Assembly (NCBI GenBank): GCA_000961845.1
Contig: LADZ01000016.1
Location: 20,465 to 84,464, forward strand
Length of the DNA: 64,000 nucleotides
Direction: 5' to 3'
Source of the DNA: Flavobacteriales bacterium BRH_c54
GTDB lineage: Bacteria > Bacteroidota > Bacteroidia > Flavobacteriales_E > Vicingaceae
Under the pieces are notes generated by a model. The model saw only the letters and a program-made list of their open reading frames with translations, was not told where the DNA came from and ran no database searches. Below are positions 17,496 to 44,583 of this stretch, in pieces. The position numbers and the translations under genes were made by a program. Every line of letters starts with the position of its first letter. The stretch's first letter is position 1.

Positions 17496-17503
17496 TACTT
17501 TCG
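17496..17503 (+). promoter_or_regulatory. -7 promoter box for the coiled-coil protein gene
   Basis: TACTTTCG lies 56 bases before the ATG at 17560. A TTTATG at 17471-17476, with a 19-base spacer, could be the -33 element. The 234-base gap upstream also holds a weak AACTC/GAGTT hairpin at 17441-17455 and no ORF that I can see. Confidence 0.5.
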
Positions 17504-17559
17504 GAGTAAGCCGAAAATCCCGAAAAAGAGTAGGCGTTATTTTTCAAAAAATATACATT

Positions 17560-33943: not shown

Positions 33944-36900
33944 TTATTTTAAGAATTTGCTGTTGAATTTCGCATCATTGTTATAGATATTGATGAAATA
34001 AATTCCTTTAGCATTTTCATTAAAAGGAACTGTAATAATTCCTTCATTGTTATTGATGTTTAATTTAGTTGAAACTATAACTTGTCCTAATGAATTTAAG
34101 ATATTTAAGTTGTAAGTTCCTTGAGCAATATTCTCATAAGAAATGTTGATGTTGTTATTGATATTATCAAAATAAGCAACCATTGATTTTCCATTGTTTA
34201 AATCATCAATACTATTACAAACATCCACTACAATAGAACCATTATGTATATCTGTTCCACATGAGTTAGAAATTACCACAGCAAAATTATGCGTTCCTGC
34301 AACACCAAAACTTACTAATGGATTAGCTATTGTTGATGACCCCATAGATGGACTTCCTTGAGGGAATGACCAGTTGTAAGAAGTAGCACCTACTGAACTC
34401 GAAGCATCAAACTGAACATTCATGTTTTCACAAATATTACTGTTTGGAGTAAAAGTAACTACAGCAGATGGTGCTTGGTTTACAGTAATGGTTATTTGGT
34501 CAGTATTAGAACAACTTCCTGTAGTACCTGTAACGGTATAAGTTGTAGTAGCAGTAGGAGTAAAAGCAACTCCATCAGTTACTCCATTATCCCAAGTATA
34601 AGAAGAGGCATTACCACTTCCTGTTAAAGTAACAGATTGACCTGCACAAATAGAAGTAGAGGTAGCAGTAGCTGTCACAGTTGGAGCAGGGGTTACAGTA
34701 ATGGTTATCTGATCTGTGTTAGAACAACCTCCTGTAGTACCTGTAACGGTATAAGTTGTAGTAGCGGTAGGAGTAAAGGCAACACCATTAGTTACACCAT
34801 TATCCCAAGTGTAAGCAGAAGCATTGCCACTTCCTGTTAAAGTAACAGATTGACCTGCACAAATAGAAGTAGAGGTAGCATTAGCAACTACAGTAGGAGC
34901 AGGATTTACAGTAATGGTTATTTGATCTGTATTAGAACAACTTCCTGTAGTACCTGTAACGGTATAAGTAGTAGTAGTTGAAGGAGTGAAAGCAACTCCA
35001 TTAGTTACCCCGTTATCCCAAGTATAAGAAGAAGCATTACCACTTCCTGTTAAAGTAACAGATTGACCTGCACAAATAGAAGTAGAGGTAGCATTAGCTG
35101 TTACAGTTGGAGCCGGATTAACAGTAACGGTTACTTGAGCTGTATTTTGACAACTGTTAGTACCTGTTCCGGTTACAGTGTAAGTTGTGGTAGTTGAAGG
35201 AGTAAAAGCAACACCATTAGTTACACCATTATCCCAAGAGTAAGAAGATGCACCACCTCCTGTTAAAGTTACAGGGGCGCCAGCACAAATAGTTGTTGCT
35301 GTAGCATTCGCAGTAACTGTAGGAAGCGCTTCAATGGTAACTGTTCCATTGTATGTGTCAGTACCACAAGCACTTGTTATTTGTAATGAGTAGTTGTGTG
35401 TTCCGGCAGCTCCAAAACTAACTGTTTCAAAAGGATTGGTGGATGAACTCATAGATGGACTTCCTTGAGGGAATGACCAACTGTATGTTGAGGCATTGGT
35501 TGAACTTGTTCCATCAAATACTACGTTTGTTCCTTGACAAATAGTAGTTGATGGCGTTACAGTTACATTAGCAACAGTTGGTAAGTTCATTACATAGATA
35601 GTTACAAATCCATTACCAGAACAACCTCCTGTAGTTCCTGCAACATTATAAGTTGTAGTAGATGTTGGAGAAACAGTAATTGCGTTGGTTGTTTGTCCAC
35701 CCGGAGACCACAAATAGCTTGTTGCACCAGATGCAGTTAGTGTTACAGAAGTTCCTGAGCAAATGGTATCAGCTGTTGTAGCTATACTAACATTTGGAGA
35801 TGGATTAACGGTTATGGTTACAGAATCAATTCTATATCTGCTACATCCTCCACCAACAACTTCTAAATAAGTAGTATATGTTCCGGCAGAGCTATACAAT
35901 ACACTATCAATTACATTGTTTGAATTAGCAGGGTTCATTCCCGGGAAAGACCATAATAATGTATCTTGACCTGTAGAACCTGTAGCATCATATTGCACCA
36001 CTTCTCCTTCACATATAGTAGTTGGAGTAGCAGTTAAAGAAATAGCAGTGGTGTCATTAGTTAACCAAGGGAAGAAATAATGAGTTACACTTAATCCCCA
36101 GCCACCTGTACCATTATAAGCATTCCATGTATTGTCATTCCATTGCTCCCAAGCAGTATTTGGGGTAGATTGTGCATCTGCATTAGTCACAACGGCAATG
36201 GTGTCACCTACTGCCATGTTTAAGTTAGCAAAACGTACTCCTACAAACACTTCTCCCGAAGCAGGAAGAGGAACAGCATTGTCAAACTCAATGAAAGGAA
36301 TACCGGGAGTATTTGCTATAACATAAGACATAGGCAATGTTTTTGTACCTAATAAAGCACCAACTGTTCCTCCTGTTCCATCATATACATTTACATCAAT
36401 AGTCTTAGTTGGTGTATTGGTAGAAGCTCTTGCAAACCATATATAAGTACCTATCAAATAATTGAAACCACTTGTTTGAGTAGCATTATAATAATTTAAC
36501 TTAGCTCTATCGCCATAGCTGTTTGTTCCTGCAACATATCCATTTCCTGCACCTGCACTATATAATGTTGGTGTCCATCCAAAATGAAAAGGACTACCGG
36601 TAGTATCCATATCTATAATTTCGCATGTTCCCGGTTGAACAACATTGATGTAATTGGTTTTGGTTTCAGTATCATTACCATTAGTGTTAGTAACTGTTAA
36701 AGAAACTTCATACAAACCAATATTGTTATAAGTAACCGTATGTGGACCTTGAGTATTTGCTGTAGCTGGTACAACACCCCCTAAGCTCTGATTGTCAAAA
36801 TTCCATGACCAAGTGGTAGGAGCAAATGTTGACTGATCTGTAAAAGTAACAGAACTACCTGCATAAACAGTAGTTACATTGGCTGTAAATTCAGCAACAG

Positions 36901-38287
36901 GAGGATTACTTAAGCTGGCAGAAACACATTGTAAAGCTTGAAAAGCATTTATTCTCCCTGCTCCAAGTCGTCCAATATATCCTGGGTTGGCACCATCAAT
37001 ATTATCAGCAGAAGAATACATACAATTAATTAATGCTGTATTTGGCATAGTTGGGTTTAAAGATTTCATTAAACCTAAAAGTCCTGAAACCATTGGAGAA
37101 GCCATAGAAGTACCACTCATATAAGAGTAGCTATTGTTTGGTATAGTACTCGCAATATTACTACCCGGTGCGGTAATATCAACAGAATTCCCATAGTTAG
37201 AAAAACTTGACTTAACATCACCTGTTGTAGAAGAAGCTACAGAAATTACATTATTATAATTAGAAGGATAATGAGGGGTATTGTCATTATTTACATTGTC
37301 ATTTCCTGCTGCAGCAACAACTATAGAACCATTGTTCCAAGCAAAATTAACTATATTTTGACCAGTAGTTGAGTAGCCTGTTCCTCCCCAAGAGCAATTA
37401 ATAACATCAGCACCATTAACTGCAGCGTAATAAATTCCATCATATCCATTAGTTACTGAATTAGATCCGGCATTGTTTCTAGTGGCTTTAACAGCCATAA
37501 TGCTAATACCAAACCCAATAGAAGAAACTCCAATAGTATTATCTGTTTCTGCACCTGTAGTTCCTGCAACGTGTGTTCCATGACTAAAAGCAGTAGTTGG
37601 TGGGTTTGGGTTATTATCATTATCACCAACATCATAACCATTTACATCATCCACATATCCATTATTATCATCATCAATACTGTTATTAGGTATTTCTCCC
37701 GTGTTAGTCCATATTTGATTAGTTAAATCTGGGTGAGTAATTTGTACTGCATTATCTACCGTAGCTACAACTATGTTGGCATTACCTGTACTAATATTCC
37801 AAGCTTGTTCTGCTTGAATTTGAAATAAGCCCCACATATTAGTAGTGTTGTGATATTGGTCGTTTGGAGTATAAGAAGTTTTATATAAAGGTACTTTTTC
37901 AGCATAATCAACAGCACCAGAAGCTTCTAATTCATTAATAAAAGTTTCTACGTTTTCTATATCATCAAATTCAATTAAATAAGTGTTTAACAAATCCTGA
38001 GAGGAATATGCTTTTGGAAATGGTCTTGAAAGTTTTTTAATGGTATGATTTACAAAAACATTTCTTAAAAAAGGCATAGATGATAATTTAATGTTTTCAT
38101 CATTAAATGCTTCAATATTACCACTCTTAGAAGCTTGTTTTACAATAAAATTTTCTTCAGAATTTTTTATTTTAAACCAAATTTTACCGTCTTGATAATC
38201 TTCATAAACTTTTTGAGAATATCCGATACTTACAGTAAATGCTAACAGAAGTGTTAAAATACTTTTAAATAATAAATTTGTTTTCAT
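33944..38287 (-). CDS. Giant secreted subtilisin-like serine protease with PKD/Ig repeats and T9SS tail
   Basis: A 1447-residue S8 peptidase. It has a signal peptide (about 1-24), a propeptide (to about 145) and a catalytic domain with D178 (VVATVDNAV), H236 (SHGTHVAG), oxyanion N329 (AAAGND) and S394 (SGTSMASP), all intact. Next come a PKD domain (about 465-550), a beta-rich segment (about 555-745), further PKD/Ig-like domains, and four consecutive Ig-like repeats of about 71 residues each (about 1020-1305), then a last PKD-like domain and a type A T9SS sorting domain (last 80 residues, ending KFLK). It is a single-gene unit closed by a terminator hairpin. It is probably anchored or released at the cell surface; the repeats are likely stalk or carbohydrate-adhesion modules. 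Confidence 0.94.
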   Translation of the reverse strand: MKTNLLFKSILTLLLAFTVSIGYSQKVYEDYQDGKIWFKIKNSEENFIVKQASKSGNIEAFNDENIKLSSMPFLRNVFVNHTIKKLSRPFPKAYSSQDLLNTYLIEFDDIENVETFINELEASGAVDYAEKVPLYKTSYTPNDQYHNTTNMWGLFQIQAEQAWNISTGNANIVVATVDNAVQITHPDLTNQIWTNTGEIPNNSIDDDNNGYVDDVNGYDVGDNDNNPNPPTTAFSHGTHVAGTTGAETDNTIGVSSIGFGISIMAVKATRNNAGSNSVTNGYDGIYYAAVNGADVINCSWGGTGYSTTGQNIVNFAWNNGSIVVAAAGNDNVNNDNTPHYPSNYNNVISVASSTTGDVKSSFSNYGNSVDITAPGSNIASTIPNNSYSYMSGTSMASPMVSGLLGLMKSLNPTMPNTALINCMYSSADNIDGANPGYIGRLGAGRINAFQALQCVSASLSNPPVAEFTANVTTVYAGSSVTFTDQSTFAPTTWSWNFDNQSLGGVVPATANTQGPHTVTYNNIGLYEVSLTVTNTNGNDTETKTNYINVVQPGTCEIIDMDTTGSPFHFGWTPTLYSAGAGNGYVAGTNSYGDRAKLNYYNATQTSGFNYLIGTYIWFARASTNTPTKTIDVNVYDGTGGTVGALLGTKTLPMSYVIANTPGIPFIEFDNAVPLPASGEVFVGVRFANLNMAVGDTIAVVTNADAQSTPNTAWEQWNDNTWNAYNGTGGWGLSVTHYFFPWLTNDTTAISLTATPTTICEGEVVQYDATGSTGQDTLLWSFPGMNPANSNNVIDSVLYSSAGTYTTYLEVVGGGCSRYRIDSVTITVNPSPNVSIATTADTICSGTSVTLTASGATSYLWSPGGQTTNAITVSPTSTTTYNVAGTTGGCSGNGFVTIYVMNLPTVANVTVTPSTTICQGTNVVFDGTSSTNASTYSWSFPQGSPSMSSSTNPFETVSFGAAGTHNYSLQITSACGTDTYNGTVTIEALPTVTANATATTICAGAPVTLTGGGASSYSWDNGVTNGVAFTPSTTTTYTVTGTGTNSCQNTAQVTVTVNPAPTVTANATSTSICAGQSVTLTGSGNASSYTWDNGVTNGVAFTPSTTTTYTVTGTTGSCSNTDQITITVNPAPTVVANATSTSICAGQSVTLTGSGNASAYTWDNGVTNGVAFTPTATTTYTVTGTTGGCSNTDQITITVTPAPTVTATATSTSICAGQSVTLTGSGNASSYTWDNGVTDGVAFTPTATTTYTVTGTTGSCSNTDQITITVNQAPSAVVTFTPNSNICENMNVQFDASSSVGATSYNWSFPQGSPSMGSSTIANPLVSFGVAGTHNFAVVISNSCGTDIHNGSIVVDVCNSIDDLNNGKSMVAYFDNINNNINISYENIAQGTYNLNILNSLGQVIVSTKLNINNNEGIITVPFNENAKGIYFINIYNNDAKFNSKFLK
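34478..35335 (-). repeat. Four tandem 213-bp coding repeats in the subtilisin gene
   Basis: Four units encode about 71 residues each with the core CAG(Q/A)(S/P)VTLTG...YTWDNGVT(N/D)GVAFTP. Three are close to identical in DNA as well as protein; the fourth, the first in the protein (about 35113-35335), is more divergent. The TTTTYTVTG strand is shared by all. Confidence 0.85.
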
Positions 38288-38440: not shown

Positions 38441-39505
38441 TTACGGAAGAAACAAAATGTATCCGGAATTAATGCCTGACTGAAATTGATGGGAAAGTTG
38501 TTGGTTGTTTTTGTAAACAGAAATAGTACTATTTTGCACAAAATCTTTTGCATCAGCAACATAAATTTCTTGAGTAGTTGGGTGTATACCTAAGCTATAA
38601 AAAACCTCCCCATTATTGGAAACCCAATTTGATGTTGGTAAGGATGTATCATTAATATTCATTTTAAAAATATGATTATTAATGAAGTATAAATTTTCTT
38701 TTGAGTTATCAATTATTAAATCTGACGGAGAGTGATTAATATTGCCAAATACCAAAGTTTGTTCAATAGTTCTTAAGGTTGGATTAAACTTTATTAATTG
38801 AGCATTAGCTTCATTAAAACCACCGTCACACATTATCCAAATGTTATTATTTTTATCTAATACTAAGCTATTTGGTTGAATTCCTACCGAAATATTATCA
38901 ATAATTTGATGATTAGTTGTATTAATGAGTATTAATTTGTTGTTACTCATGTCACAAACATAAGCAGTATCGTTATAAATAAGCATTTCTTCTGTCCAAT
39001 TAGAGTTAGTTGTAATACTTCCAGAAATGGTGTTGTTTATTAAGTTTACGATGTTAATTTTATTGGAAAAGAGATTGCTTACATAAGCTGTTGATGAATT
39101 TATAGGTAGAAAATACCTGGGAGAATCAAAACCTGTAATGGTAGCTATTGAAGTAAAATCAGCTTTATCAATAATTTCAATTTTATTGGAATTATTCACT
39201 ACTACCACTATTTTTTCATTGAAATAATAAGCAGATTGGGCTACATCGCCTAAAGGATAATTATTGACTTGTTGAAAAATACCGTGATGTATATTTCTGT
39301 TTGTGGAGTTGTATAGTGTTAAAGTTGCGTTTCCAAAACCAAAATTCCCTTCATTAATAATAATAACATCATTTTGAATAGAAGGGGAAATGGCGTTTTC
39401 CTCACAGTTTTTACATTGCGGACCAAATTCTTCTTTTTTACAAGAAGAAAAAGTTAACAGGAATAATGCTAAGCCAACAAGGATATTTGAGGTGAAATTG
39501 TTCAT
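38441..39505 (-). CDS. btuG: BtuG-like beta-propeller surface lipoprotein
   Basis: A 354-residue lipoprotein (lipobox TFSSC, C22, followed by a CKNC motif) folded as a YVTN/YncE-type beta-propeller: the blades contain repeated 'x-IIDK/VNL...IATITGF' strand pairs and the VSNLFSNKINIVNLINN and YVCDMSNNKLILINTTNH motifs (about 70-300). In Bacteroides, BtuG is a propeller lipoprotein that binds cobalamin at the mouth of BtuB; similar DUF5074 propellers accompany BtuB in many Bacteroidota. Here it overlaps btuB by 4 bases (TGA/ATG) and is the last gene of the riboswitch operon, so a B12-capture role is a strong inference. The symbol is by context. Confidence 0.7.
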   Translation of the reverse strand: MNNFTSNILVGLALFLLTFSSCKKEEFGPQCKNCEENAISPSIQNDVIIINEGNFGFGNATLTLYNSTNRNIHHGIFQQVNNYPLGDVAQSAYYFNEKIVVVVNNSNKIEIIDKADFTSIATITGFDSPRYFLPINSSTAYVSNLFSNKINIVNLINNTISGSITTNSNWTEEMLIYNDTAYVCDMSNNKLILINTTNHQIIDNISVGIQPNSLVLDKNNNIWIMCDGGFNEANAQLIKFNPTLRTIEQTLVFGNINHSPSDLIIDNSKENLYFINNHIFKMNINDTSLPTSNWVSNNGEVFYSLGIHPTTQEIYVADAKDFVQNSTISVYKNNQQLSHQFQSGINSGYILFLP

Positions 39506-41391
39506 AATTTAAAAGCTAAGGTTAGCATGTAGTTTCTTAGTGGCATTGGTCTCCAGGCAATAGATTGGTAGGTTTGGTTAAAAAGGTTGTTCACTTGAAA
39601 ACGTAAATTAAAGGTAGTAGTTTTTAGTTTAATATCTTGAGAAAGAGAGACGTTAGAAATATAATTTGCCGGTAAATACCAATTGTTATCAGTGCTAATG
39701 TATCTTAATCCAGTGTAATAATAACCGTAACTTAAGGTGGTATTTTTATACGTTAATTTTATGTTTGAATTAAATTGATGTTGAGGTACATAAATTAATT
39801 GTTTGTAAAGAGCATCATCGGTATTTTTAGGTAAATCAATGTTCTTTGAAATGGTGTAAGCATAATTCCCTCTGATGCTTAAATCAACTTTGTTGAGCTT
39901 GTATTTGATGGTTAGCGTGCTTTCAACACCTTTGTTTTCTACTTTCTTTAAATTAGTAGGACTCCAAATATTTCCTGCACTTGGCTGCCATAAAATCCAG
40001 TTGGAAACATGAGCAAAAAAGAAAGTATTTTCTGTGGTAATAGTTGTTTTCCCAAAAGCTTTTTGGTATTTCAGTCCAGCTTCACTCATTTTTGCTTCTT
40101 CGGGTTTTAAATTAGGATTTCCACCAGGTGTCCAATACAAATCGTTAAAAGTGGGGTAGTTGTGATTTATTCCCGCAGCAGCTTTTAATGTTACACTTTC
40201 TAATTTAGGAAGTTGATAACCTAATGAAATACTTGGAGCTAAAGGTTTGAAGTAATCATCAACAACAGTCATTCTATTAAAAACAGTCCAATTTAAGCGT
40301 TTTAAATTTCCGGAAAAACCTGTTAGCCAACTATTGTTGAATCTTTTGTGCTCGCTATTATAACCATCTGCTTTAGCTTGTTCATGTCTTATATTAATTT
40401 TATTCAAAAAAGTAATTTTATCGTTTATAAAATAATTGACATCTATATGGTTATCAATTAAAAGACTGTTATTTTTTGAATTGATATCAATAAGTTTATT
40501 GTTGTAAATTAAGTTGTCGTGAATAAGAGCAGTACTTATTTTATAAGAGATTTTGTTTTTAAAACCAGTAGTATTGATTAACAAACGAAAAGATTCATCT
40601 TGTTGTGTTTCATCATTTTTTTCTACCAGCATGGTTGAGGGTAAGTTTCTATCGCTATTGAAATACCAAAACCTTATGCCAATGGTTTGGTTTTTTACTT
40701 TTTTATAAATGGCTTGTTGAAATCCGTATTGTTTTAAGGCTGCATTTTGAAGTCTTTCTTCAGGATTTTCTTTTTTGGAAAAGTTATGATATACTAAATC
40801 ATTCTCTGCATCGGAGTGTAAAATTCGTGTTTCGTAAAACCAATTGTTGGTTCCTAAATATGAAACTTTTCCACTATGAATTTGTTTGTTAAAACTGCCT
40901 ATGGAATAGTTGTAGTTCAATTTTACCGATTTTGTTGAATCATTAAAATTGGGCAAAGAATTTTGCAGGTTTATACTACCTCCTAATGCACCATTTCCGT
41001 CAATTAGTCCACTTGCACCGTAATGGAGCTCTACCTTATCAAAAAATGGAGTGGGGTATAAAGAAAAATCTATTTGCCCGTTCATGGGGGAATTTAAAGA
41101 AACGCCATTCCACAATACACGTGTATGGCCTGCACCTGTACCTCTAAAAGATACGGAGGCTAAAGAACCCGAACCATAAGACTTAATAAAAACGGTAGAA
41201 TTTTCTTGTAACAGTTGGGCTAAATTTTCAACAGATTTGGTGATAACAGCATCTAAGTTGGTTGTTTTGTAAGTGGCGGATACTGCTAATTCTTCAATAA
41301 CAAAGGGTTCAAATTTAATAGTGTCATTCAGTAATTGTCCAAAGGTGTTTTGAACAATAAACAGGGTAAATATGACGCTTATTAATTTCAT
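39502..41391 (-). CDS. btuB: TonB-dependent receptor, BtuB-like
   Basis: A 629-residue outer-membrane receptor with a signal peptide (about 1-18), a plug domain (about 40-150) carrying VSFRGTGAGHTRVLWNGVSLN and GALGGSINL, and a 22-strand barrel ending in an aromatic-rich LTLAFKL. The length is close to that of BtuB. The position behind a cobalamin riboswitch and before the propeller lipoprotein identifies the probable substrate as vitamin B12 or related corrinoids. No clear TonB box is recognised near the N-terminus. It overlaps the propeller gene by 4 bases. Confidence 0.88.
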   Translation of the reverse strand: MKLISVIFTLFIVQNTFGQLLNDTIKFEPFVIEELAVSATYKTTNLDAVITKSVENLAQLLQENSTVFIKSYGSGSLASVSFRGTGAGHTRVLWNGVSLNSPMNGQIDFSLYPTPFFDKVELHYGASGLIDGNGALGGSINLQNSLPNFNDSTKSVKLNYNYSIGSFNKQIHSGKVSYLGTNNWFYETRILHSDAENDLVYHNFSKKENPEERLQNAALKQYGFQQAIYKKVKNQTIGIRFWYFNSDRNLPSTMLVEKNDETQQDESFRLLINTTGFKNKISYKISTALIHDNLIYNNKLIDINSKNNSLLIDNHIDVNYFINDKITFLNKINIRHEQAKADGYNSEHKRFNNSWLTGFSGNLKRLNWTVFNRMTVVDDYFKPLAPSISLGYQLPKLESVTLKAAAGINHNYPTFNDLYWTPGGNPNLKPEEAKMSEAGLKYQKAFGKTTITTENTFFFAHVSNWILWQPSAGNIWSPTNLKKVENKGVESTLTIKYKLNKVDLSIRGNYAYTISKNIDLPKNTDDALYKQLIYVPQHQFNSNIKLTYKNTTLSYGYYYTGLRYISTDNNWYLPANYISNVSLSQDIKLKTTTFNLRFQVNNLFNQTYQSIAWRPMPLRNYMLTLAFKL

Positions 41392-41406
41392 TAATTTGGT
41401 TTAAAA

Positions 41407-41434
41407 GTTTGAGGTTTGAGGTTTGAGGTTTGAA
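41407..41434. repeat. Heptanucleotide tandem tract (GTTTGAG units)
   Basis: Three exact GTTTGAG units and one GTTTGAA lie in the 89-base gap between btuB and the upstream T9SS gene. Confidence 0.85.
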
Positions 41435-41480
41435 GTTAGTTTGAAAGTTGTCAATCGGTTTTCCTTTCCCTCTTCCCTTT

Positions 41481-42470
41481 TTACAACTTTATTATTTTGT
41501 GTGTTGATACTTGTTTGTTGGCAATAATTTTTAAAAAATAAATACCTTTTTCTAAGTTAGTTGTATTAATGGTAGTGTTATTTGATGGTGTTGTTTCTTC
41601 AAGTAGTGTTTTACCATTCATATCAACAATAGTATAGTTATAATCAGTGTTGGTGTTTAACTCTAAGGTTAAATTAGTTGAAAATGGATTGGGATAAATT
41701 TGGTTGACTATTGGTTCATTTTCATTAATGTTCGTTGGTTGTTGGTGAATGATACCAATGGCGTCTAAGTCAAAACCACCAGTAGGAAATGGAGTAGGAA
41801 AAGGGTCATTGATAATATTGTTGTCATCATCATAAGTGCCATAAGTTGGATTAATGCTACCAACCACATCAATAATTTTAACGTGAGTAATATTATTTAC
41901 ATCCAACCCCGGAGTTCCATCTACATCATCTAAATCAAAAGGAGTTCCGTATTGAGCTCGGTATTTTCCGGCCAAGTTATGAATATAAGTAGCATCCATA
42001 TTGGCATTATTATCAAGTTGAGTAGTATCTTGAGTTAGCGAATGAGCAGGAAATCTAAAAAAGTTGATACCATCTGAACTTACTTCAACAAAAGCAAGTT
42101 CTAAAAACTGTCCGTCAAATGAGTTTTCGAAAATAGCAAAATCTGCTCCGGAGCTATTTTTAATGGGAGCTGTAAAAGTTAAAACAGCACTGCCTCCATC
42201 ACCAAGACTAACAACTCCTCCTGTTCCTGATTTTCCTAAAACATCAGTTACTGTTCCGGCTGTAGTTTTTCCTAAAGAAGTATCAGCAATATTTTGCCAA
42301 CCTCTTTCTATTATAGCGCTAGTGGCCCAAGCTACAAAAACAGATGAATCTTTATGAATAGCAGTTGTGCCTATTTGTCCAACAGCTGGGGCATAAGGTC
42401 CTTGAGCAATTGCTTGGTTATTAAAAAATAACAGATTGATTATAAGTATTATGTATAGATAAAATTTCAT
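41481..42470 (-). CDS. T9SS-exported cell surface protein of the B12 operon
   Basis: A 329-residue secreted protein with a signal peptide (about 1-22, ending AIAQ), a beta-rich domain (about 25-250) and a type A sorting domain (about 255-329, ending HKIIKL). The domain contains GDGGSAVLTFTAPI, SGADFAIFENSF and FVEVSSDGINFFRFPA, plus an acidic DDDNN segment that could bind calcium. Similar 'cell surface protein' genes accompany BtuB in other Bacteroidota; the assignment to cobamide binding is by context only. It lies 4 bases from the PP-loop gene and 89 from btuB. Confidence 0.78.
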   Translation of the reverse strand: MKFYLYIILIINLLFFNNQAIAQGPYAPAVGQIGTTAIHKDSSVFVAWATSAIIERGWQNIADTSLGKTTAGTVTDVLGKSGTGGVVSLGDGGSAVLTFTAPIKNSSGADFAIFENSFDGQFLELAFVEVSSDGINFFRFPAHSLTQDTTQLDNNANMDATYIHNLAGKYRAQYGTPFDLDDVDGTPGLDVNNITHVKIIDVVGSINPTYGTYDDDNNIINDPFPTPFPTGGFDLDAIGIIHQQPTNINENEPIVNQIYPNPFSTNLTLELNTNTDYNYTIVDMNGKTLLEETTPSNNTTINTTNLEKGIYFLKIIANKQVSTHKIIKL

Positions 42471-42474
42471 TGTT

Positions 42475-43197
42475 TTAATTTTTTGGAATTAAGTCAATAA
42501 ACCAAAAGCCATTTGTTTGATTATTGGAAGGTAAAGAACAATCACTTGTTGTTTTTATGTTTAAAGGTTTATACACTATTTCTTTTTTAATAAAAGGAAT
42601 CTCATTTTTAAAAATAGGTCCGTCATAACAAAAAGTATGGTATTCGCCATTTTCGCCACAAGGGTCAACATGAGATGGAAGTTGTTGGAGAAAAGAAGCA
42701 TCTATTTCTTTGCCTATCCATTCTTGTTTTAAAAACCCATCATTAATACAACATAAAATGGTTTTAAATTTTTTGGAAATAAAATCATTAATTAAAAGAG
42801 TTGTGTTCATTTTCCATAAAGGAAAAATGGCTTTCATACCTATTTTTGATAAGTTATTTTCTCTGTAAACTCTTAAATCTTCAAGGAAGATATCTCCAAA
42901 AATAACGTGTTCAATACCTTCTGTTTTTGCTTTTTGTAAGGTAACAGCCATCTGCTGCTCATAAGTTTCGTTAGATGCTGTTGTAAGTCCCACTTTTAAC
43001 AATGGAATTCCTATTGCCTCTACCTGCTTATCCAATAATGCTTCACGAATTCCGTGCATAGAAATTCTTTTTACATCTTGATTGATAGTAGTTAAAAGAT
43101 ACTTTACATCAAACTGTTTTTCTGCTAACACTTTGTGCAAACAATAGGCAGAATCTTTGCCTCCGCTCCAACAAAATATGGCTTTTGGAATTGACAT
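42475..43197 (-). CDS. Dph6-like PP-loop ATP pyrophosphatase (ATP-dependent amide ligase family)
   Basis: A 240-residue cytoplasmic PP-loop ATPase with SGGKDS (11-16), which binds ATP and forms an adenylate. It belongs with diphthine-ammonia ligase (Dph6) and its bacterial relatives by sequence, with the HGIREALLDKQ and FGDIFLEDLR motifs and the HVDPCGENGEYHTF C-terminal motif. Bacteria lack diphthamide, so the acceptor must be something else. It is the second gene of the B12-riboswitch operon, 4 bases before the next coding region, so it is expressed with corrinoid uptake genes. A role in amidating a corrinoid or a side product is speculative. Confidence 0.82.
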   Translation of the reverse strand: MSIPKAIFCWSGGKDSAYCLHKVLAEKQFDVKYLLTTINQDVKRISMHGIREALLDKQVEAIGIPLLKVGLTTASNETYEQQMAVTLQKAKTEGIEHVIFGDIFLEDLRVYRENNLSKIGMKAIFPLWKMNTTLLINDFISKKFKTILCCINDGFLKQEWIGKEIDASFLQQLPSHVDPCGENGEYHTFCYDGPIFKNEIPFIKKEIVYKPLNIKTTSDCSLPSNNQTNGFWFIDLIPKN

Positions 43198-43204
43198 TAA
43201 TTGC

Positions 43205-44221
43205 TTAGTTTTTAATTACTTTTTTAATGGCAGTTTGGTTTTCAGTTGTATATTTTATAAAATAAATTCCATTAGCAAAAGCACTTAAATTAATAGTGTG
43301 ATTTTTATCGCTTAGATTGCTTTCAACTAAAATGGTTTTACCTGTAATATCTACCAGTTCTATTGAATTTAGCATTACCTCACTAGCAATAGTTAAAAAA
43401 TTAGTTGTAGGATTCGGATAAAAACTAACGTTATTAGTTTCAGCTAATTCATTAACATTAACAGTTTGGTCATTAAAATTATCCATGCAGAAAAAAGCAG
43501 GTGTATTCATTCCCCATTGTCCAACATCTGATGAATTTAATGTAAAAATTAAACTATCCACATTGCCTAAAGAAGTTAAGTCAACCCATTCCCATTGTTT
43601 AACAATATAGTCTTGGTTGTTGTCAACAAAACGATAATCTGCCAAATAAAAATTAACGCTATCGGTAGTGATATTTCCATTCGTATATCCTTTTATAGTC
43701 AATAAAAACCAATCAGGATCATTGCCTGTAGCGCCTCCAAATTGTTTGCCAATAGCATCTCCATCTCTCATACTGTTAGCAGCATAAGTGCTATTGGTAA
43801 CAAATACACCTGTTACCATATTATTTTGAGCAAGTCCGGAAAGTTGAATAACAGCATTATTTTGGGCAACAATATAGTTATCAGAGTTGTTGTAGCCACT
43901 AGCTGCTTTAGAGGCATATAAGTTGCCAAAACCAGAGGTAACACTATCGGTTACATTTGAATATGCAAAGCCTTGCGTCCAATATCCGGGAGCTCCCCAA
44001 GCGGTATCATAAACATTAGGAAAAATAGCAGTTCCGCTAGTAAATGAACTGTAAAAAGCACCATTGATGTGTGTTCCACTGTAATCAGAGCCACTCCAAT
44101 AACTGTTAGTAGATAAGTTTAGATTTTCAAAATCTGAAACGGTTTGAGCGTTGATGTAAGTTGCGGATAACATCAATCCGAGGAAAGCTGAGCTTGCCAA
44201 TTTCATTTTTTTTCTCATCAT
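43205..44221 (-). CDS. DUF4465 T9SS-exported protein (BtuH-like)
   Basis: A 338-residue exported protein with a signal peptide (start preferably at the ATG at 44206, MKLASSAF..., although ATGs at 44221 and 44218 are in frame; cleavage after YINAQ), a beta-jellyroll DUF4465 domain (about 30-250, with WTQGFAYSN and VDSLIFTLNSSDVGQWGMNTPAFFCMDN) and a T9SS sorting domain (about 258-338, ending KKVIKN). DUF4465 genes are frequently found behind B12 riboswitches, and I recall BtuH-type B12-binding surface proteins of Bacteroides as related. It is the first gene after the riboswitch. The cobamide-binding role is inferred. Confidence 0.82.
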   Translation of the reverse strand: MMRKKMKLASSAFLGLMLSATYINAQTVSDFENLNLSTNSYWSGSDYSGTHINGAFYSSFTSGTAIFPNVYDTAWGAPGYWTQGFAYSNVTDSVTSGFGNLYASKAASGYNNSDNYIVAQNNAVIQLSGLAQNNMVTGVFVTNSTYAANSMRDGDAIGKQFGGATGNDPDWFLLTIKGYTNGNITTDSVNFYLADYRFVDNNQDYIVKQWEWVDLTSLGNVDSLIFTLNSSDVGQWGMNTPAFFCMDNFNDQTVNVNELAETNNVSFYPNPTTNFLTIASEVMLNSIELVDITGKTILVESNLSDKNHTINLSAFANGIYFIKYTTENQTAIKKVIKN

Positions 44222-44305
44222 CTTTTTTTGTTTTAATGAGGTTAATAAATAAATTAACTCAAGCCAATCAAATACATAAATGCAGTAGTTGGTTAACTTG
44301 TTTTG

Positions 44306-44349
44306 AAAAAAAATAAAGTGAAGAGAAATTTTTGTTAGAAAAATTCTTC
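44306..44349 (-). terminator. Intrinsic terminator between riboswitch and coding region
   Basis: On the minus strand a stem GAAGAATTTTT/AAAAATTTCTCTTC (one bulge) with a 5-base loop is followed by CACTTTATTTTTTTT. The T8 run maps to 44306-44313. It lies 85 bases before the first start codon and after the aptamer, where a transcription-attenuation platform should be. Confidence 0.75.
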
Positions 44350-44389
44350 GCCTTTATTCCCGAAAGCATGTTGAAGTGAAACACTTCTG

Positions 44390-44548
44390 TTAGTGGCAGG
44401 TCTCCTGACTTTCTCCTTATTTTTACGCCTTCCCGATGGTTAATCAGTGGCAAAATGTAAAAACTTACAGAGCTTACAGTTGCGGGTACAGTTCAGGTTT
44501 TTCACCTGATTCCCTATTAATTCCAGACGTTAAATCTGAAAACCAATA
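44390..44548 (-). promoter_or_regulatory. Cobalamin (adenosylcobalamin/B12) riboswitch aptamer
   Basis: The minus-strand sequence contains the B12 box AGTCAGGAGACCTGCCA (44394-44410), the GGGAATCAGGTG element (44503-44514), the ACTGTACCCGCAACTGTAAG core (44471-44493), and flanking stem segments. All conserved blocks are in the canonical order at normal spacing. It controls the DUF4465-PPloop-T9SS-btuB-btuG operon. Confidence 0.95.
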
Positions 44549-44554
44549 ACGCAG

Positions 44555-44583
44555 CAAATGTATAACAAAATTTTAAAATGCAA
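44555..44583 (-). promoter_or_regulatory. Promoter of the B12 operon
   Basis: Minus-strand TACATTTG (44555-44562) matches TAnnTTTG. TTG on the minus strand (44581-44583) is 18 bases further upstream. The predicted start falls near 44548, right at the 5' end of the aptamer. Confidence 0.65.

What the first reader, a model, noticed from the sequence alone, without database searches (positions are those of the whole stretch)
38441..44583. A riboswitch-driven B12 capture operon with two T9SS-tailed proteins
Seen: cobalamin riboswitch, then DUF4465 protein, PP-loop enzyme, second T9SS protein, BtuB-like receptor and propeller lipoprotein, all on the minus strand with 4-nt overlaps or short gaps. 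Known: BtuB/BtuG and BtuH-type B12 capture in Bacteroides uses surface lipoproteins. Inferred: here the two extra surface components are delivered by type IX secretion instead, an alternative architecture for cobamide capture.
Basis: partly seen in the sequence, partly recalled or inferred. Interest (0 to 1): 0.75.

Follow-up and report, generated by a model that had tools for sequence, protein, structure and literature searches.

The report
Type IX-secreted vitamin B12 catchers
In this Flavobacteriales-type bacterium a vitamin B12 riboswitch heads an operon that encodes a B12-receptor-like protein plus two proteins with type IX secretion tails, which are predicted to catch B12 outside the cell; relatives across the Bacteroidota carry similar operons, whereas the known B12 catchers of gut Bacteroides are lipoproteins.

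Summary
RF00174 (121.5 bits) precedes five minus-strand genes: DUF4465+T9SS tail, DUF71-B12 PP-loop enzyme, protein C+T9SS tail, BtuB-like receptor, BtuG-like lipoprotein.

DUF4465 binding of B12 is published; I found no report of T9SS delivery in five searches. Binding, secretion and regulation are untested. New variant of a known kind.

The parts
44378..44562 (-). cobalamin riboswitch aptamer (RF00174), head of the operon; its first 8 nt (TACATTTG, 44555-44562) fit the flavobacterial -7 box TAnnTTTG
   Evidence: promoter consensus from passages of PMC9723704; the fit was read by eye from the sequence printed
43205..44221 (-). DUF4465 (BtuJ-type) protein, signal peptide (judged by eye), C-terminal T9SS type A tail; the exchangeable partner of C
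43475..43987 (-). DUF4465 domain (residues 79-249), HI-loop motif NTPAF (Phe where most described members have Tyr)
43214..43420 (-). T9SS sorting tail of the DUF4465 protein (residues 268-336)
   Evidence: PF18962 59.5 bits
42475..43197 (-). PP-loop ATP pyrophosphatase of the DUF71-B12 subgroup (motif ENGEYH)
   Evidence: motif from PMC3541065
41481..42470 (-). protein C: signal peptide (judged by eye), BtuH-like domain, T9SS type A tail
41733..42401 (-). BtuH-like domain of C (residues 24-246), with invariant Asn116 and Phe118
41490..41699 (-). T9SS sorting tail of C (residues 258-327)
   Evidence: PF18962 55.4 bits
39502..41391 (-). BtuB-like TonB-dependent receptor
38441..39505 (-). BtuG-like beta-propeller lipoprotein (DUF5074), lipobox-like LTFSSC
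33944..38287 (-). T9SS-tailed S8 subtilase with PKD domains; possible sixth gene of the operon (membership uncertain; tail above the TIGR04183 cut-off but below Pfam's)

Best explanation
A cobalamin riboswitch heads an operon whose two T9SS-tailed proteins, a DUF4465 (BtuJ-type) protein and a protein C with a predicted BtuH-type domain, likely are exported by type IX secretion to the cell surface, where they would bind cobamides and hand them to the BtuB/BtuG-like transporter encoded behind them. Shown by sequence: the riboswitch, the gene order, the two tails, the BtuB and BtuG homologies, the T9SS translocon in the genome, and the linkage of C to B12 riboswitches in its family and in most other Bacteroidota loci examined. 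Inferred: low B12 opens the riboswitch; both proteins cross the inner membrane by Sec and the outer membrane by the T9SS, and the type A tail is cut with attachment to LPS or release; bound cobamide passes to BtuG and through BtuB by TonB; the DUF71-B12 enzyme acts on imported cobamide in the cytoplasm. Lipidation would carry only the BtuG lid; the capture proteins would use T9SS.
Against: No binding, secretion or expression datum exists for these genes. C has no sequence match to BtuH in the PDB by profile; the profile-profile match covers only 37-84 columns (80.8%), and with fewer BtuH rows it was weaker (8.2e-4); Foldseek ranks an F5/8C domain (3nng) first and gives BtuH chains TM 0.45-0.49; beta-sandwiches match each other readily. 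Only two of the described BtuH contacts could be mapped. The window's DUF4465 has Phe at the HI-loop position that PMC13398666 reports as Tyr in 97% of homologues. 10 of 80 C loci have neither riboswitch nor B12 gene nearby, four of them with under 2.5 kb upstream, and 31 of 80 have no recognised T9SS-tailed partner within 6 kb, contig ends included. The propeller partners find no BtuG chain in a PDB profile search, and a profile of the DUF4430-type repeats finds no transcobalamin there.
Confidence: 0.76

Rival explanations
1. C is a carbohydrate-binding (CBM32 or F5/8C-like) surface protein that is co-regulated with B12 uptake but does not bind cobamides; only its DUF4465 or propeller partner binds B12.
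Against: Both solved BtuH domains outrank every CBM32 row shown by 2.0 Z or more, over more residues; C stands behind a B12 riboswitch without BtuB, BtuG or a partner gene near in eight loci confirmed by Rfam and is fused to DUF4465 in two.
Confidence: 0.14
2. The two T9SS proteins are released rather than kept on the cell, and act as soluble or vesicle-borne cobamide carriers that are recaptured, like a siderophore (a sub-case of the best explanation).
For: Type A tails can lead to LPS attachment or release (recalled). Vesicle-borne BtuJ feeds B. thetaiotaomicron (PMC12751083 passages).
Against: Nothing in the sequence tells release from attachment; no recapture receptor distinct from BtuBG was looked for.
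Confidence: 0.25
3. The tails are by-products of a T9SS-rich lineage and the riboswitch link is chance or hitch-hiking.
For: Many T9SS-tailed proteins exist in these genomes (34 matches to C in this genome; the ones listed besides C itself are tail regions), and 10 of 80 C loci lack a B12 neighbour.
Against: 39 of 39 testable C places behind a riboswitch in 46 genomes, in-place exchange of the partner, riboswitch-C units.
Confidence: 0.03

Closest known systems
Bacteroides thetaiotaomicron B12 loci 1 and 2 (BtuJ, BtuH, BtuGH, BtuG, BtuB)
   Same: Riboswitch-led operons with BtuB, a BtuG propeller and extra B12-binding proteins of the DUF4465 and BtuH types; domains fuse, as in BtuGH (PMC10404256, PMC12751083, PMC8941943 passages). 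Comparable loci L257 and L258 were fetched here; the BtuH2 orthologue in L258 was confirmed against 7biz, L257 only by gene content.
   Different: There the extra binders are lipoproteins, some enriched in vesicles (PMC12751083); here they carry T9SS tails, C is a stand-alone divergent BtuH-like domain without PKD domains, and a T9SS-tailed BtuG-like propeller or DUF4430 protein can stand in for DUF4465.
DUF4465 family survey, PMC13398666 (abstract, Results and Discussion read)
   Same: Same domain; B12 binding by eight members, one from Fluviicola; gene neighbours include TonB-dependent barrels and PF16819 propellers.
   Different: It counts over 70% lipoproteins and gives the rest periplasmic targeting signals; a word search found no T9SS, type IX, sorting or operon in it. 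Here the 120 best of 3986 hits to the window protein all carry PF18962.
DUF71-B12 subgroup, PMC3541065 (abstract and passages)
   Same: Motif ENGE[FY]H and B12-operon context.
   Different: It was predicted to do the work of bacterial CbiZ in genomes with CbiB; this family keeps DUF71 in 37 of 46 genomes with CbiB in 1 and CobS in 2.
Vertebrate transcobalamins (DUF4430 C-terminal domain; PMC4350170, one passage)
   Same: Three of 80 C loci have a T9SS-tailed partner with PF14478 repeats above cut-off.
   Different: Not in the window; bacterial, repeated two or three times, T9SS-tailed; no transcobalamin chain found by PDB profile search.

Membership tests
Cobalamin riboswitch (RF00174) | covariance-model score above gathering | tested here: met
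   121.5 against 31.5 bits
Cobalamin riboswitch (RF00174) | B12-dependent control of the downstream genes | not testable with these tools
   needs transcript data
DUF4465 / BtuJ B12-binding proteins | PF14717 domain | tested here: met
   167.6 bits; DUF4465 chains 9fct, 9i2l and 9hmu, among others, match
DUF4465 / BtuJ B12-binding proteins | HI-loop Tyr (97% of homologues in PMC13398666) | tested here: not met
   NTPAF in the window; among 120 T9SS-tailed relatives 161 NTPxF and 51 NTPxY in the 20 commonest motifs printed; in the 80 wider loci NTPxY is the commoner. This lowers certainty of binding, not membership by PF14717
DUF4465 / BtuJ B12-binding proteins | B12 binding | not testable with these tools
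   published for others, not for this protein
BtuH B12-binding domain (protein C) | BtuH fold | tested here: met
BtuH B12-binding domain (protein C) | sequence homology over the domain | tested here: inconclusive
   hhalign P 1.3e-5 over 37-84 columns; with fewer BtuH rows 8.2e-4, and 0.035 with a wrongly chosen row; no hit in the PDB profile search
BtuH B12-binding domain (protein C) | B12-contact residues | tested here: inconclusive
   Asn399 and Phe401 align to invariant Asn116 and Phe118; Gln333, His476, Tyr510, Trp511, Trp577 and Leu578 could not be mapped
T9SS type A cargo | signal peptide plus PF18962/TIGR04183 tail above cut-off | tested here: met
   tails; the N-terminal signal was judged by eye only
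T9SS type A cargo | T9SS machinery in the genome | tested here: met
   SprA and PorU models above cut-off; other components not searched
T9SS type A cargo | secretion through T9SS | not testable with these tools
   needs an experiment
BtuG | DUF5074-type propeller lipoprotein homologous to solved BtuG | tested here: met
   lipobox by pattern
BtuB | TIGR01779 cut-off | tested here: not met
   100.5 against 599.7 bits; it is the best match and the second is also a BtuB model, hence 'BtuB-like'
DUF71-B12 | ENGE[FY]H motif | tested here: met
   ENGEYH; 27 of 29 proteins found in the mapped loci, window included
DUF71-B12 | co-occurrence with CbiB (published pattern) | tested here: not met
   CbiB in 1 of 46 genomes, 0 of the 32 good ones

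The most novel reading that the evidence does not exclude
T9SS-bearing Bacteroidota own a phylum-wide cobamide-capture relay of their own: a new BtuH-like family (C) exported by type IX secretion, paired with an exchangeable second exported binder (a BtuJ-type jelly roll, a BtuG-type propeller or a transcobalamin-type DUF4430 protein), working as LPS-linked or released 'cobalophores' that load BtuBG, followed inside by a DUF71 ligase that re-amidates damaged cobamides, because these auxotrophs cannot rebuild them.
Probability: 0.32. Interest if true: 0.83.

Novelty: new variant of a known kind. Interest (0 to 1): 0.67.

Why it matters
Models of B12 capture in Bacteroidota rest on gut Bacteroides, whose binders are lipoproteins. 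If environmental Bacteroidota export theirs by type IX secretion, surveys that sort proteins into lipoproteins and periplasmic ones miss a large part of the system, and competition for B12 in their habitats involves binders that may be releasable. C gives an unnamed protein family a testable function, the exchange of three unrelated partner folds in one operon position points to new B12 binders by position alone, and the DUF71-without-CbiB pattern reopens the role of an enzyme whose family is named after diphthamide synthesis.

Tried and rejected
Sequence searches of C against the PDB (phmmer, profiles) gave only T9SS tails or weak chance hits. The first BtuH alignment held a histidine kinase picked by mistake as BtuH1 and gave P 0.035; redone. 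The first riboswitch alignment A3 mixed strands and was replaced by A4, from which model R1 was built. The fold search with full-length C was dominated by the tail and by multi-domain enzymes, so the N-domain was modelled alone. The DUF4465 search over the phylum found 9 of 296 genomes, 8 over the cut-off, and served mainly to fetch BtuH and BtuJ orthologues. A CbiZ-like role of the DUF71 enzyme was rejected for this family for lack of CbiB and CobS. R1 hits in L200 and L203 are weak and not reported by Rfam; the L174 hit is partial and not counted. A first tally of the 80 loci misplaced the start of C in a few loci; one search replaces it, with L230 added by hand because searches show its riboswitch. 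A sigma-70 promoter scan found no more sites than shuffles and was not used. The T9SS-tailed neighbour of C in L200 was not identified.
Full report
OBSERVATION. A cobalamin riboswitch (RF00174, 121.5 bits, E 5.7e-30) lies at 44378-44562 on the minus strand, the only one found in the genome. Behind it on the same strand follow a DUF4465 protein with a T9SS tail, a PP-loop enzyme, a second T9SS-tailed protein (here 'C'), a BtuB-like receptor and a DUF5074 propeller lipoprotein. The receptor falls below the curated TIGR01779 cut-off, but that model is its best match; the propeller's closest solved chains are BtuG-type.

THE DUF4465 PROTEIN. DUF4465 is the BtuJ domain. Published work shows B12 binding for BtuJ1 and BtuJ2 (PMC12751083, passages) and for six further distant members, one from Fluviicola (PMC13398666; abstract, Results and Discussion read). 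That survey counts over 70% lipoproteins and gives the rest periplasmic targeting signals; its text contains neither T9SS nor type IX. Yet the 120 best of 3986 hits to the window protein all carry PF18962 as well as PF14717 (the other hits are not listed). One caution: the HI-loop tyrosine that the survey finds in 97% of homologues is Phe in the window (NTPAF) and in most of these 120 (161 NTPxF, 51 NTPxY among the 20 commonest motifs printed), while NTPxY is the commoner in the wider set of loci.

LINKAGE IN THE FAMILY. The tool searched 46 genomes of the order, this one included; all belong to one family. DUF4465 occurs in 25 of 46, full-length C in 40 of 46 at 41 places, a riboswitch in 42 of 46, the PP-loop enzyme in 37 of 46. 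Every genome with DUF4465 has C. Of 41 C places, 39 have a riboswitch on the contig, and in all 39 it is on the same strand 1.0-3.0 kb upstream; the other two are G022 (only a partial match) and G032 (C starts 265 nt from the contig end). Gene order was mapped in 44 genomes (G003 and G036, 69% and 66% complete, had neither C nor riboswitch). The T9SS-tailed gene accompanying C is DUF4465 in 25 genomes and a 415-459 aa protein in the 14 others that can be tested; none has both; in the window and three close relatives the PP-loop gene lies between partner and C. The 14 proteins align with the BtuG-like lipoproteins over 311 columns (hhalign 99.6%, E 1.2e-22), although a PDB profile search finds only their tails. 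On a tree of 39 C proteins the partner type changed at least twice, G023 having a propeller within a DUF4465 clade. In the four genomes that have the riboswitch but no C (G020, G021, G037, G042) no T9SS-tailed gene was seen with BtuB and BtuG, so the pair appears to come and go together. Pfam finds the T9SS tail in 65 of 65 proteins (25 DUF4465, 40 C; one per genome, the second C copy of G031 left out) and in 14 of 14 propellers.

LINKAGE ACROSS THE PHYLUM. Record titles name Flavobacteriales, Chitinophagales, Bacteroidales, Sphingobacteriaceae, Winogradskyella, Mariniflexile, Flavobacterium, Fluviicola and Taibaiella. With a covariance model built from the family's riboswitches a riboswitch lies upstream of C in 61 of 80 (two, L200 and L203, are weak and not reported by Rfam). 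70 of 80 have a riboswitch or a BtuB, BtuG, BtuF, DUF71, DUF4465 or propeller gene within reach; 10 have neither, four of them with under 2.5 kb of upstream sequence, and Rfam found no riboswitch in these ten. In eight loci the riboswitch stands before C with no BtuB, BtuG or partner gene near (L194 and L230 have a BtuF-like gene; contig ends limit some); Rfam confirms 8 of 8. In L181 and L205 DUF4465 and C are fused in one protein, much as BtuG and BtuH are fused in Bacteroides (PMC10404256 passages). The T9SS-tailed partner near C is DUF4465 in 31 loci, a propeller in 10, another T9SS-tailed protein in 6, fused DUF4465 in 2 and none recognised in 31. Five of the six others (L180, L212, L232, L235, L237) share a repeat; three of them (L180, L232, L237) match DUF4430 (PF14478) at 44.0-69.3 bits against a cut-off of 23.8. 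A passage of PMC4350170 places DUF4430 at the C-terminus of vertebrate transcobalamins. A PDB profile search with the repeats found no transcobalamin. So three unrelated folds, each with B12-binding members or kin, occupy the same place.

MACHINERY AND NEED. SprA is in 45 of 46 genomes, and a PorU match, cut by a contig end, in this one. The genome has methylmalonyl-CoA-mutase-family genes, but no CobS or CbiB was found, so it would depend on imported cobamides. In two relatives a further riboswitch precedes ribonucleotide reductase genes, which would fit repression by B12.

THE PP-LOOP ENZYME. Its motif ENGEYH places it in the DUF71-B12 subgroup of PMC3541065 (abstract and passages); 27 of 29 proteins in the mapped loci share ENGE[FY]H. 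That paper proposed a role like bacterial CbiZ because nearly all genomes with CbiB have one or the other. Here 37 of 46 genomes have the enzyme, 1 has CbiB and 2 have CobS; among the 32 good genomes the numbers are 29, 0 and 1. Products of a CbiZ-like cleavage could hardly be rebuilt. An ammonia ligase that restores hydrolysed amide side chains of imported cobamides is my alternative; it is inference only.

MECHANISM. Low B12 would open the riboswitch; Sec and T9SS would export the two binders, with tail cleavage and LPS attachment or release (recalled for type A tails); cobamide would pass to BtuG and through BtuB. Which binder comes first is unknown.

LITERATURE. Five searches joining type IX secretion, T9SS or sorting domains with B12 terms listed no paper that, by title and abstract, describes T9SS-exported B12 binders. 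I read passages of three of the listed papers: PMC9723704 (a cobalamin riboswitch before a TonB-dependent transporter in Flavobacterium psychrophilum, no T9SS link stated), PMC12578637 and PMC12016528; none makes the link. The others were seen as listings only, and the library holds only openly licensed papers.

VERDICT. A real delivery variant of a known B12-capture system, found in many Bacteroidota and not met in the searches made, with a newly recognised BtuH-like family. Interest 0.67.

Noticed in passing
33944-38287 (-): A T9SS-tailed S8 subtilase with PKD domains follows the BtuG-like gene without a clear terminator between; a strong subtilase match lies downstream of the B12 genes in 11 of 44 mapped genomes, several maps being cut by contig ends. 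It may belong to the B12 operon.
   Followed up: partly
L181:5946-7610, L205:4315-6096: Natural fusions of DUF4465 with the BtuH-like C domain, the first with a T9SS tail.
   Followed up: yes
L180:8806-9990, L232:7486-9111, L237:8319-9944; also L212 and L235: T9SS-tailed proteins with two or three repeats next to C; in the first three the repeats match DUF4430, the transcobalamin C-terminal type.
   Followed up: partly
L132, L136, L145 (G015, G019, G028): Tandem DUF4465 domains in one T9SS-tailed protein as C's partner; many of the best database hits are also double-length.
   Followed up: no
L162, L163 (riboswitch loci of G033 and G026): A second cobalamin riboswitch in two relatives precedes ribonucleotide reductase genes, in L163 with a 4HBT thioesterase gene first.
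   Followed up: partly
L119, L148 and other propeller-type loci, downstream of DUF71: A roughly 1800-2200 aa repeat protein follows the PP-loop gene in propeller-type genomes; its link to B12 is unknown.
   Followed up: no
17501-17536 (+): Rfam DUF805b RNA match, 36.9 bits against a gathering score of 35.6.
   Followed up: no
L194, L230, L236: Riboswitch-C units with matching flanking ORF lengths (805 aa in front; 159 and 216 aa behind, all on the other strand), two with a BtuF-like gene downstream, suggest a second conserved B12 locus type.
   Followed up: no
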